Assembly: GCF_003628535.1 (NCBI RefSeq)
Contig: NZ_RBCI01000002.1
Span: 186,001 to 250,000 of the forward strand
Reading direction: 5' to 3'
DNA: 64,000 bases
From: Flavisolibacter nicotianae
GTDB lineage: Bacteria > Bacteroidota > Bacteroidia > Chitinophagales > Chitinophagaceae
Position numbers and translations under genes: made by a program. The notes under the pieces were generated by a model, which worked only from the letters and a program-made list of their open reading frames with translations, did no database searches and was not told where the DNA came from. Positions 9,413-50,926 of this stretch are shown piece by piece (within the stretch, counting starts at the first letter, position 1; each line of letters opens with the position of its first letter).

Positions 9413-9991
9413 ATGGTACCCGATCTTTTATGGTGGCGGCAGTTGTCGCCGGGATGGAAACAGGCGTTTGCCGAAACGGTTTTTCACCATGCGAATGAGC
9501 CAACTCCCGGTGAGTTGGCTCAGCTTTTTGCATTGCAGGCCCTGCGTTTTGCCGGTCCCCGTGCGGCCTATGCCAATATGCGTTTTGAGCTGACTGATCT
9601 TTCGGGCGTTGCAGCGCTGACCAACCTGACCGTGCTGGTCGTCATCCACCATAGAATCGAAACAATCACCGAAGTGCAGTCGCTGACACAATTGAAAGCC
9701 TTGTTTTTGCTCGACAACCAGATCAAAAGCCTGGCAGGTATCGAAGACCTTTTGTCGCTGGAGCAACTGTATGTGCAATTGAATCAAATCGACAGCCTGA
9801 AGCCCGTGGCGAAGCTCACGAACCTGAAGGAACTGTATGTGCACGACAACCCGCTGTCGTCGCTGGAAGGTTTAACAGAAGCCCATTCGGAAAAACTGGA
9901 AGGTTTCTTTTGCAAGCCCAATGAGGGACTGAAGCAAAAAGAAATCATGCGGGTGGAGCGGGAACTCTATATCCGCTGCCGCGGCATCTGA
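9413..9991 (+). CDS. Leucine-rich-repeat protein (SDS22/internalin-type repeats)
   Basis: 192 aa. A helical cap (residues 1-55) is followed by about five 22-residue leucine-rich repeats: LTDLSGVAALTNLTVLVVIH, IETITEVQSLTQLKALFLLD, IKSLAGIEDLLSLEQLYVQL, IDSLKPVAKLTNLKELYVHD, then LSSLEGLTE, and a basic C-terminal cap. No signal peptide, so probably a cytoplasmic protein-binding scaffold. It lies between the tail-collar and sulfotransferase genes (18 and 9 base gaps), where it might present a substrate to the sulfotransferase (inference). A terminator-like hairpin lies inside its coding region at 9496-9522. Confidence 0.85.
   Translation: MVPDLLWWRQLSPGWKQAFAETVFHHANEPTPGELAQLFALQALRFAGPRAAYANMRFELTDLSGVAALTNLTVLVVIHHRIETITEVQSLTQLKALFLLDNQIKSLAGIEDLLSLEQLYVQLNQIDSLKPVAKLTNLKELYVHDNPLSSLEGLTEAHSEKLEGFFCKPNEGLKQKEIMRVERELYIRCRGI
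9496..9522 (+). terminator. Intragenic hairpin with short T run (possible attenuator)
   Basis: TGAGCCAACTC and GAGTTGGCTCA form a perfect 11-base-pair inverted repeat around a five-base loop, followed at once by a GC then TTTTT. It has the form of an intrinsic terminator but sits about 28 codons inside the LRR gene, in the sense direction. It might lower transcription of the LRR and sulfotransferase genes relative to the three upstream genes. Coincidence from codon choice cannot be excluded. Confidence 0.4.
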
Positions 9992-21775: not shown

Positions 21776-21803
21776 AAAGGGCTGCCGTTGCGGGCAGCCC
21801 TTT
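21776..21803. terminator. Bidirectional intrinsic terminator
   Basis: AAAGGGCTGCC and GGCAGCCCTTT form a perfect 11-base-pair stem with loop GTTGCG, flanked by A-rich sequence on the left and T-rich on the right. It lies between the convergent COG4705-type and M16 peptidase genes and can serve both. Confidence 0.9.
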
Positions 21804-33103: not shown

Positions 33104-33120
33104 ACCGTGATGTTTTTCCC

Positions 33121-33161
33121 ACATGAAAAAAGCTCCGTAGCGGACGGGGCTTTTTTCATGT
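33121..33161. terminator. Intrinsic terminator, symmetric
   Basis: A 17-base arm ACATGAAAAAAGCTCCG pairs with CGGGGCTTTTTTCATGT around a short loop, with one G-T pair. A-run on one side and T-run on the other, so it can work in both directions; it ends the glycine-zipper transcript. Confidence 0.9.
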
Positions 33162-33312
33162 GGCAGCCTAAGGGCTGACCGTTGTTTTTGCCACAAGGAT
33201 CGAAGCCCTTTAATGGTTAACCGACAAAATGAAAGCGTTAAACTAAAACGCACAAAGGTCAATTAAACATTGTCCAATTTTACGGTCTAAACCTCGCACC
33301 AAACAACCAATT

Positions 33313-43444: not shown

Positions 43445-43471
43445 AACGCTTTCTTTTCAAAAGAAAGCGTT
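43445..43471 (-). terminator. Intrinsic terminator of the thioredoxin-ApbE-DUF4266-DUF3570 operon
   Basis: AACGCTTTCTTTT and its complement form a 13-base inverted repeat; on the minus strand it is followed by TTATTTT. It lies 31 bases after the DUF3570 stop. Confidence 0.85.
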
Positions 43472-49200: not shown

Positions 49201-49481
49201 ACAAGATGGTTTGTCGGTGAAATGATTTTTTGCTGTTTGGAAAACAGGCTGTTGCAAACAGTTGGCCGATACGTCAAGGTAGGCATCTTTCTGCGAACCG
49301 GTGGTTTGTCTTTCTGCAATCCCGGGTCTGTGTGGCAAAGGATTGCCGGGAAATGGAGCTGCAAAAAACCGCTGAAAACGTGAACGGAGAGGGTGGTGGC
49401 AGCGCGGTCATAATTGCCCTTCCGCCTGTGACGGCAGGCGCCTGTCGAATTTGTTTACAGCTTATCTTCGCTTGGCTTACA

Positions 49482-49533
49482 CAGGAAATGGTGTCTTCCT
49501 GACCCAACCGCTCCCCGAGCTAATGGCGCCTAC
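49482..49533 (+). promoter_or_regulatory. Fluoride riboswitch aptamer (crcB motif)
   Basis: GGAAATGGTGTCTTCC forms the first hairpin (GGAA/TTCC) with loop ATGGTGTC; a second small stem GCTC, CCC, GAGC follows; the 3' part is GAGCTAATGGCGCCTAC, very close to the conserved GCTgATGrCnCCTAC end of fluoride riboswitches. The loop GGTGT can pair with GCGCC to make the required pseudoknot. It lies directly before a CLC-type gene whose motifs are those of fluoride/proton antiporters, as in known systems. Confidence 0.85.
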
Positions 49534-49570
49534 AAATAGTCCTGTCATTACTCATAAATCTATTTGTAGG
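49529..49570 (+). promoter_or_regulatory. Riboswitch expression platform: translation-blocking hairpin
   Basis: CCTACAAATAG (49529-49539) and CTATTTGTAGG (49560-49570) are perfect complements, 11 pairs with a 20-base loop, ending directly at the ATG (49571). The left arm includes the CC-TAC of the aptamer pseudoknot, so the two structures exclude each other. Predicted: without fluoride the hairpin covers the start region; with fluoride the aptamer holds the left arm and translation begins. No T run, so it is not a terminator. Confidence 0.75.
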
Positions 49571-50926
49571 ATGGATAAATACCAGTATTCGTTTGAACAG
49601 TTGAAAATTGCACGGCACCTGCTTTACTGGACGGTGCTGATTCTTCCCGTGGCTATCGTGGTGGGCTCTCTGGTGGCTTTGTTTCTTTGGCTGCTGGACC
49701 TGGCCACGGCAACACGCTGGCAAAACACCTGGCTGCTTTTTTTGCTTCCCCTGGCGGGCCTGCTCATTACCTTTCTCTACCGGTTTTACGGAAAAAATTC
49801 CGATGCGGGTAACAACCTCATTATGGACGAAATCCACAAACCGGGCGGCGGCATCCCCACGCGGATGGCCCCGCTGGTCCTGTTCTCAACCGTTGTAACG
49901 CACCTCTTTGGCGGCTCTGCCGGCCGGGAGGGAACAGCGGTTCAAATGGGGGGCAGCATTTCCTCTCTTTTTTCCAAATGGTTCAAACTAAAACACCGGG
50001 ACAAGCGCATCCTCCTCATGGCAGGCATGGCAGCCGGTTTCGGGGCCGTGTTCGGAACACCCGTAGCCGGGGCGGTATTTGCCATGGAAGTGCTGGCCAT
50101 CGGACGCATAAAATACGATGCCCTGCTGCCTTGCCTGATTGCTGGTCTGGTGGCCGATATTACCTGTTCTGCTTACGGCATTCACCACACGCAATATAGG
50201 ATTGCTTTTGTGGGGCACACGCACCAGGTATGGTCCTGGCTCCCCGTTTCGTTTGACCTTTTGTTGCTGGGCAAAGTCATCGTGGCGGGAGTTGCATTTG
50301 GGTTTGCCGGCTTTCTTTTTGCCGAAACCTCGCACCTTCTCAAGGAAGGCGCTGCCAAATACGTTCGCAACAAATGGCTGCTGCCGGTGGTCGGAGCGGC
50401 CCTGGTTATTAGCACCAGCTATGCACTGGGAACCTTTGATTACCTGGGATTGGGCGTCACCAACCCGCGGGGAGGCGTCAGCATCGTTTCGGCTTTTACA
50501 CCCGGCGGTGCCGCTACCTGGAGCTGGCTCTGGAAATTGCTGCTGACGGCCCTTACGCTCAGTACGGGATTTAAGGGCGGGGAAGTAACGCCGTTGTTTT
50601 TTATCGGGGCAACACTGGGAAATACGCTGGCGGCGATCAGCGGTTCGCCGGTCGATCTTTTTGCGGGTCTTGGCTTCATTGCGGTTTTTGCAGGAGCCAC
50701 CAATACGCCACTTGCCTGTACACTGATGGGGATCGAGTTGTTTGGCGCCAACAACGTGGTGTATTTTGCCGTGGCCTGTTTTACCGCTTATTATTTCAGC
50801 GGCCATTCAGGCATCTACGGCTCGCAACGGCTTGCCGTATCAAAATTTCATCTCACCCACACCGGGGAGCGCACCCTGAAACAAATGAAGCAGGAAAAAG
50901 CGGCAGTAAGCAAAAGGAAACAATAA
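49571..50926 (+). CDS. CLC-family fluoride/proton antiporter (CLC-F type)
   Basis: 451 aa with 10-12 membrane helices. The CLC signature regions are GGGIP (residues 92-96), [14 protein letters not shown] (GREGT instead of the chloride-type GREGP) and [20 protein letters not shown] (instead of GxxGGxFxP). GREGT together with GFKGGEVTP marks the fluoride branch rather than the chloride branch. It should expel F- in exchange for H+. ATG 49571 is fixed by the riboswitch hairpin; the open frame back to 49451 goes through the riboswitch. The basic C-terminal tail ([16 protein letters not shown]) is cytoplasmic. Confidence 0.9.

What the first reader, a model, noticed from the sequence alone, without database searches (positions are those of the whole stretch)
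49482..49570. Fluoride riboswitch with an 11-base-pair translation-blocking hairpin abutting the start codon
The aptamer consensus (first hairpin, GCTaATGgCgCCTAC end, loop-to-3' pseudoknot GGTGT/GCGCC) is followed by a perfect 11-base inverted repeat whose left arm shares bases with the aptamer and whose right arm ends at the ATG. This gives a direct switch model, aptamer or hairpin. The downstream gene has CLC-F motifs, so ligand and gene agree.
Basis: partly seen in the sequence, partly recalled or inferred. Interest (0 to 1): 0.7.

Follow-up and report, generated by a model that had tools for sequence, protein, structure and literature searches.

The report
Fluoride switch that hides start codon
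A known kind of RNA fluoride sensor sits just ahead of a fluoride-exporter gene and, in this bacterial family, appears to work by folding the RNA right up to the gene's start codon rather than over a separate ribosome-binding signal.

Summary
Rfam's fluoride model (RF01734) matches window 49475-49539 (+), 47.4 bits against a cut-off of 34. A perfect 11-bp inverted repeat, 49529-49539 / 49560-49570, ends one base before the ATG at 49571. The gene, 49571-50926, is a CLC-F type fluoride/proton antiporter.

The hairpin is a family trait. In a survey of the window's family (Chitinophagaceae, judged by named relatives), 101 of 105 clcF leaders, the window's included, pair the aptamer's 3' end with a right arm ending 0-6 nt before ATG, and the arms covary. 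TTTT after the arm is rare (3 of 105), so a translational platform is best supported.

Two refinements. Only 3 of the 11 base pairs use aptamer-core bases, so fluoride should weaken the hairpin (about -12.2 to -5.0 kcal/mol), not abolish it; for this window the modelled gain is small. The arm hides no Shine-Dalgarno (SD) site; 0 of 33 window genes have an SD-like core, whereas Sphingobium and Sphingomonas relatives carry AAGGAGG in that arm.

Verdict: known riboswitch class, SD-free translational platform, fluoride response untested.

The parts
49463..49470 (+). Likely -7 promoter element TATCTTCG (Bacteroidota type TAnnTTTG, one base off)
   Evidence: Sequence; TAnnTTyG found in the 60 nt ahead of the aptamer, mostly 3-17 nt ahead, in 99 of 133 family aptamers against 7.7 expected from base shuffles; motif as quoted for B. 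fragilis in PMC7366714. No clear -33 element seen in the window.
49475..49539 (+). Fluoride riboswitch aptamer (RF01734)
   Evidence: cmscan 47.4 bits, cut-off 34, E 5e-10
49482..49501 (+). Aptamer first hairpin (P1): arms 49482-49487/49496-49501, loop AUGGUGUC
   Evidence: Rfam alignment and minimum-energy fold
49490..49494 (+). Pseudoknot 5' strand GGUGU
   Evidence: Sequence; register recalled from the T. petrophila aptamer
49510..49520 (+). Aptamer second hairpin GCUC/GAGC
   Evidence: Rfam alignment, fold
49526..49530 (+). Pseudoknot 3' strand GCGCC
   Evidence: Sequence; overlaps the sequestering hairpin by two bases (49529-49530)
49523..49531 (+). Linchpin pair A40 (49523) with U48 (49531); U48 is also in the hairpin left arm
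   Evidence: Position by recalled T. petrophila numbering; role of A40-U48 in PMC8752731 passages
49529..49539 (+). Left arm of the sequestering hairpin, CCTACAAATAG
49540..49559 (+). Hairpin loop, 20 nt
49560..49570 (+). Right arm, CTATTTGTAGG, positions -11 to -1 of the gene; no SD motif at usable spacing
49571..50926 (+). clcF: CLC-F type fluoride/proton antiporter, 451 aa
   Evidence: Pfam Voltage_CLC 6e-73; best solved structure 6d0j CLC-type fluoride/proton antiporter 4e-63, next entry that is not of this antiporter 1e-7

Best explanation
A fluoride riboswitch controls translation of clcF. Without fluoride, bases at the 3' end of the aptamer (49529-49531) join the following eight bases in an 11-bp hairpin whose right arm covers positions -11 to -1, so the 30S subunit cannot load at the AUG (off). 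[quoted passage not shown] What remains is a weaker, AU-rich 8-bp stem that a ribosome could open (on), and the exporter is made. Shown by computation: aptamer, hairpin, gene identity, family-wide conservation and covariation, lack of a U-tract, no SD-like core ahead of 33 window genes. Inferred: fluoride binding, the direction of switching, control at translation rather than through coupled termination or decay.
For: RF01734 hit. CLC-F identity. PF02537 finds no CrcB/Fluc in the genome. In 105 family clcF leaders the arms pair far better than base-shuffled right arms (mean score 10.52 against 4.30, 100 rounds) and better than arms swapped between genomes (8.77, s.d. 0.15; 0 of 1000 swaps reach the observed mean). 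In the 101 leaders scoring at least 7 the right arm ends 0-6 nt before ATG although 0-12 was allowed, 68 of them at 0 or 1; the other 4 score below 7. Pair types: pair 3 A-U 61, G-C 25, G-U 15; pair 4 C-G 93, A-U 5, G-U 3. On a quick CLC-F tree of 100 proteins the two sides of pair 3 changed together in a mean of 6.1 of 11 independent comparisons, never oppositely, and the right side did not differ in 4.9 (median p 0.03). TTTT within 12 nt after the arm in 3 of 105. Removing CCU from the hairpin lowers the modelled opening energy of -15..+12 by a mean of 5.6 kcal/mol over 101 leaders, more than 2 in 96 of them.
Against: For this window the modelled gain is only 2.2-2.5 kcal/mol: a residual stem of -5.0 kcal/mol remains, and in the on model the AUG itself becomes more paired, with codons downstream (unpaired probability of its A 0.57 off, 0.03 on). 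The model treats the aptamer as merely unpaired and has no ligand energy. Arms were anchored by best pairing, which favours pairing. Of seven pairs put on the tree only pair 3 reached p<0.05. Swapping does not remove relatedness. Folding z only -1.87. No experiment.
Confidence: 0.85

Rival explanations
1. Transcription control: the hairpin is an intrinsic terminator, as in Bacillus cereus crcB, and fluoride prevents termination.
For: Overlap of the hairpin with aptamer pseudoknot bases is also the design of transcriptional fluoride switches (PMC13273304, section 33). Some Bacteroidota leaders outside the family do have T-rich stretches after the hairpin, e.g. L172, L184, L193.
Against: The window arm is followed by ATGGATAA, no U-tract. 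TTTT after the arm in only 3 of 105 family clcF leaders. The right arm ends at the start codon instead of well ahead of it.
Confidence: 0.05
2. Translation block is the first event but the main output is mRNA level, through Rho-dependent termination or decay of untranslated mRNA.
For: General coupling of translation and mRNA stability in bacteria (recalled; no call).
Against: Nothing examined here speaks for or against it.
Confidence: 0.3
3. The hairpin is a constant brake, not a switch: because 8 of 11 pairs survive aptamer folding, fluoride has little effect in this window.
For: Opening-energy change only 2.2-2.5 kcal/mol here, against a family mean of 5.0-5.6; the AUG is more paired in the on model.
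Against: The outermost pairs, the ones shared with the aptamer, are the best kept: pairs 0-4 form in all of the 97-101 leaders compared. The full stem is -12.2, the residual -5.0 kcal/mol.
Confidence: 0.08
4. The conserved TATTTG in the right arm is a second promoter element and the inverted repeat is incidental.
For: TCTATTTG differs by one base from TAnnTTTG.
Against: The arms covary, and leaders such as L111, L022 and L168 keep the hairpin with arms lacking TATTTG. A promoter-like element lies instead ahead of the aptamer in 99 of 133.
Confidence: 0.02

Closest known systems
Bacillus cereus crcB fluoride riboswitch (transcriptional)
   Same: Aptamer class; 3' end of aptamer shared with the regulatory hairpin; A40-U48 linchpin position present
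   Different: Output hairpin is a terminator with a U-tract there; here it has no U-tract and abuts the AUG
Translational fluoride riboswitches of Pseudomonas syringae and Burkholderia pseudomallei (named as translational controls in PMC13273304)
   Same: Aptamer class, no intrinsic termination
   Different: Not read here themselves. In two Pseudomonas, one Paraburkholderia and one Citrobacter plasmid leader the hairpin that starts in the aptamer lies tens of bases ahead of the ATG; the fold shows a second, separate hairpin running up to the ATG, so a stem against the start is not unique to the window's family
Sphingomonadales clcF leaders (Sphingobium, Sphingomonas plasmids; Novosphingobium looks alike but its aptamer did not reach the cut-off)
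   Same: Hairpin starting in the aptamer 3' end with the right arm running up to the start codon
   Different: Right arm contains AAGGAGG, an SD-like core; the window and its family have none there
Bacteroides TPP riboswitches said to regulate transcription or translation (Costliow, Degnan and Vanderpool preprint; seen only as a citation in PMC7366714) and GibS sRNA (PMC7366714 passages)
   Same: RNA-based control at an SD-less translation start in Bacteroidota
   Different: Other ligand and aptamer; GibS acts in trans

Membership tests
Fluoride riboswitch (RF01734) | Covariance-model score above the gathering score | tested here: met
   47.4 bits against 34
Fluoride riboswitch (RF01734) | P1, second hairpin and loop-3' pseudoknot | tested here: met
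   Hairpins alignment and fold; pseudoknot 5 pairs, two G-U, read from sequence
Fluoride riboswitch (RF01734) | A40 and U48 linchpin nucleotides | tested here: met
   A 49523 and U 49531 by position; numbering recalled, role in PMC8752731 passages
Fluoride riboswitch (RF01734) | Ahead of a fluoride exporter or tolerance gene | tested here: met
   clcF 49571-50926
Fluoride riboswitch (RF01734) | Binds fluoride and changes gene expression | not testable with these tools
   Needs in-line probing and a reporter
Translational expression platform | Hairpin shares aptamer bases and covers the translation start region | tested here: met
   101 of 105 family leaders score at least 7 with ends 0-6 nt before ATG
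Translational expression platform | Sequesters a Shine-Dalgarno sequence | tested here: not met
   Right arm is CTATTTGTAGG, with AGG touching the AUG; 0 of 33 window genes have GGAG, GAGG or AGGA at -20..-5, 1.0 expected by chance
Intrinsic-terminator expression platform | U-tract after the hairpin | tested here: not met
   Window tail ATGGATAA; 3 of 105 family leaders have TTTT within 12 nt
CLC-F fluoride/proton antiporter | Closest to CLC-F among solved CLC proteins; GREGT-type signature | tested here: met
   6d0j 4e-63, next 1e-7; GREGT present in the translation, its meaning recalled
CLC-F fluoride/proton antiporter | Transports fluoride | not testable with these tools
   Needs an assay

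The most novel reading that the evidence does not exclude
In SD-less Bacteroidota the fluoride riboswitch uses an SD-free platform in which the aptamer's own 3' end pairs with the start-codon region. For clcF the arm stops 0-6 bases before AUG. For crcB in the same family the AUG and codons 2-3 lie inside the stem, so the switch dictates the protein's N-terminus (Met-X-Arg with Arg as AGG): 12 of 14 crcB genes directly behind an aptamer (five from one genus) against 1 of 28 without one.
Probability: 0.5. Interest if true: 0.55.

Novelty: new variant of a known kind. Interest (0 to 1): 0.4.

Why it matters
How riboswitches control translation where ribosomes ignore Shine-Dalgarno sites is hardly described in the papers found here. 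This family offers about a hundred natural, covarying examples with a simple ligand, a short leader and a defined gene, so the rule 'hide the bases beside the AUG' can be tested directly by moving the arm one base at a time. Two relatives in SD-using bacteria carry the same design with an SD in the arm, a natural comparison.

Tried and rejected
Terminator reading: rejected for lack of a T-run in the window and in 102 of 105 family clcF leaders, the window's included. Second-promoter reading of TATTTG: rejected because the hairpin persists in arms without it. SD reading of GTAGG: rejected on spacing (it touches the AUG) and on 0 of 33 window genes with an SD core (starts there are simply the first ATG of non-overlapping ORFs of 200 aa or more, so approximate).

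Counts and dropped rows. 133 family aptamers above cut-off were fetched and oriented; 105 were assigned a clcF start and 28 set aside because none was placed. Pair columns leave out the four leaders scoring below 7 (L068, L094, L105, L144); the tree used 100 of the other 101 (proteins over 250 aa). In other families of the phylum (44 leaders classified) the picture is mixed: 10 abut, 8 weak, 26 overlapping the start, inside the CDS or farther away, some with T-rich tails; starts there are by longest ORF and often unsure. Four clcF relatives outside Bacteroidota (Vibrio, Thaumasiovibrio, two planctomycetes) do not show the arm against the start (placed by the tblastn match, not by a checked ATG). 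The crcB count: 14 leaders whose gene I read as crcB from its sequence; L073 and L120 (ATGNNNAGG present, gene not read as crcB) and L043, L064, L080 (crcB further downstream) were left out; the 28 controls are 30 loci of the best-scoring matches less two with an aptamer, aptamer absence judged by a short motif within 120 nt.

Attempts that led nowhere: a Gammaproteobacteria survey (not accepted) gave way to 16 plasmid clcF leaders out of 40 rows listed of 114 matching records, 12 with a fluoride aptamer above cut-off, 14 viewed. A clear -33 promoter element was not found in the window.

Changed on re-checking: the second hairpin against the ATG in Pseudomonas, Paraburkholderia and Citrobacter leaders is now told, and the odds of the novel case were lowered from 0.55 to 0.5 for it.

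Full report
Observation. The sequence described is there. Rfam's fluoride model matches 49475-49539 on the + strand with 47.4 bits (cut-off 34, E 5e-10) and is the only Rfam match at gathering score in the window; the genome shows one such aptamer. The perfect 11-bp repeat 49529-49539 / 49560-49570 with a 20-nt loop ends directly before the ATG at 49571. Perfect repeats this long turn up in 1 of 2000 shuffles of the 126-nt stretch, and there are five in the 64-kb window, so length alone is modest evidence.

Gene. The 451-aa product matches Pfam Voltage_CLC (6e-73) and, among solved structures, the CLC-type fluoride/proton antiporter 6d0j (4e-63) far ahead of ordinary CLC proteins (1e-7). The genome shows no CrcB by PF02537. 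Two same-genus genomes, G004 and G104, have crcB but no clcF match and no aptamer match. The nearest named relatives are Lacibacter, Ilyomonas, a Sphingobacteriia MAG and Segetibacter (77-82% identity), and the contig lengths of four of those records recur among the family genomes, so the family is taken to be Chitinophagaceae.

Conservation. 130 of 394 family genomes have a match to the aptamer model, 122 above cut-off, and 136 of 388 have a clcF match at E 1e-60 or better. I oriented 133 aptamers; 105 could be assigned a clcF start. Looking for right-arm ends 0-12 nt ahead of that start, 101 of 105 score at least 7, and their ends all fall at 0-6 nt, 68 of 101 at 0 or 1. Pairs 0 to 4 are formed in every leader compared (97-101). 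The mean pairing score is 10.52, against 8.77 (s.d. 0.15, 0 of 1000 reaching it) when right arms are swapped between genomes and 4.30 when they are shuffled. Swapping does not remove relatedness, so I also used a quick CLC-F tree of 100 proteins: for pair 3 (the aptamer A or G after CCU) the two sides changed together in a mean of 6.1 of 11 independent comparisons, never oppositely, the right side not differing in 4.9; median p 0.03. The other six pairs tested did not reach significance.

Output level. TTTT within 12 nt after the right arm occurs in 3 of 105 leaders and not in the window. A Bacteroidota-type -7 element lies ahead of the aptamer, mostly 3-17 nt ahead, in 99 of 133 (7.7 expected); the window has TATCTTCG at 49463-49470. 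The transcript therefore probably starts close to the aptamer and reads through the hairpin into the gene.

No Shine-Dalgarno. Bacteroidota lack SD sequences, and start-region structure tunes initiation in Flavobacterium johnsoniae (PMC6847099, abstract and two sections read); their ribosomes hide the anti-SD tail (PMC9976891, abstract start in a listing). In the window 0 of 33 genes have an SD-like core, 1.0 expected. The right arm's GTAGG touches the AUG. By contrast, clcF leaders of Sphingobium and Sphingomonas have the same hairpin with AAGGAGG in the right arm; Novosphingobium looks alike, but its aptamer did not reach the cut-off. In the Pseudomonas (2), Paraburkholderia (1) and Citrobacter (1) leaders the aptamer-borne hairpin lies tens of bases from the start, and the fold shows a second hairpin running up to the ATG (14 plasmid leaders viewed). 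A stem against the ATG is therefore not confined to the window's family; what marks the family is that the aptamer's own end forms it, without an SD.

Mechanism. By recalled T. petrophila numbering, the left arm takes C46, C47 and U48 from the aptamer. PMC8752731 (passages) reports that A40-U48 is the linchpin that fluoride locks. Holding CCU in the aptamer cuts the hairpin from -12.2 to -5.0 kcal/mol. Over 101 leaders the opening energy of -15..+12 falls by a mean of 5.6 kcal/mol (range 0.55 to 11.9; more than 2 in 96). For this window it falls by only 2.2 (2.5 for -6..+6), and in the on model the AUG pairs more, with codons downstream. So fluoride should weaken the block, not remove it, and this leader may be a shallow switch. 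That is against a strict either/or model and is the weakest point of the account.

Beyond the window. In the same family, aptamers directly ahead of crcB pair CCUG... with a right arm that contains the AUG and codons 2-3. ATG-NNN-AGG occurs in 12 of 14 such genes and 1 of 28 crcB genes without an aptamer (Fisher p 1e-7). Caveats: five of the 14 come from one genus, one (L055) has in-frame stops, the crcB reading of several rests on their N-terminal sequence, and some control starts are uncertain.

Known work. PMC13273304 (abstract, passages, section 33) built covariation models for transcriptional fluoride switches, used P. syringae and B. pseudomallei as translational controls, and has no word beginning 'Bacteroid' in its main text. 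PMC8814607 (passages) says that fluoride riboswitches use terminators or, presumably, translation. PMC7366714 (passages) cites a preprint on TPP riboswitches that regulate transcription or translation in Bacteroides, which I did not see, and reports sRNA repression at SD-less starts. Searches of the held library for fluoride riboswitches in Bacteroidetes or Chitinophaga and for riboswitch control at start codons in Bacteroidetes, Bacteroides or Bacteroidota showed, in the titles and abstract starts listed, no description of this platform; most of those papers I did not open, and subscription papers, including the fluoride riboswitch paper sought, are not held. The claim of novelty is limited accordingly.

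Noticed in passing
L020, L024, L031, L041, L044, L063 and others (family crcB leaders): The fluoride aptamer's 3' end pairs with a right arm containing the crcB start codon and codons 2-3 (ATG-NNN-AGG), so the switch seems to constrain the protein's N-terminus.
   Followed up: partly
L043, L064, L080: A clcF-type hairpin lies against an ATG that is not the crcB start (in L043 a two-codon frame), and crcB starts further downstream; possible coupling through a short upstream frame.
   Followed up: no
L209, L210, L211, L206 (plasmid clcF leaders): Besides the aptamer-borne hairpin, a second hairpin ends directly at the clcF ATG; how it is linked to the aptamer is unknown.
   Followed up: no
G061, G143, G206, G235, G252, G365 and others: Genomes with two to four fluoride aptamer matches, several within a few kb of each other, some ahead of a ~400-aa gene beginning MQLKKATVFVVLLGCTSLFSDMTYE or alike, of unknown role.
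   Followed up: no
window 49423-49440: Short perfect repeat CGCCTG/CAGGCG upstream of the putative promoter; role unknown.
   Followed up: no
window 33119-33163, 9496-9522, 21776-21803, 43445-43471: Other perfect inverted repeats of 11-15 bp with short loops.
   Followed up: no
G004, G104 against G000: Two same-genus genomes carry crcB without clcF or a fluoride aptamer match, whereas the window's genome carries clcF with an aptamer and no crcB.
   Followed up: partly
L079 (G307): clcF behind an aptamer is split between two reading frames.
   Followed up: no
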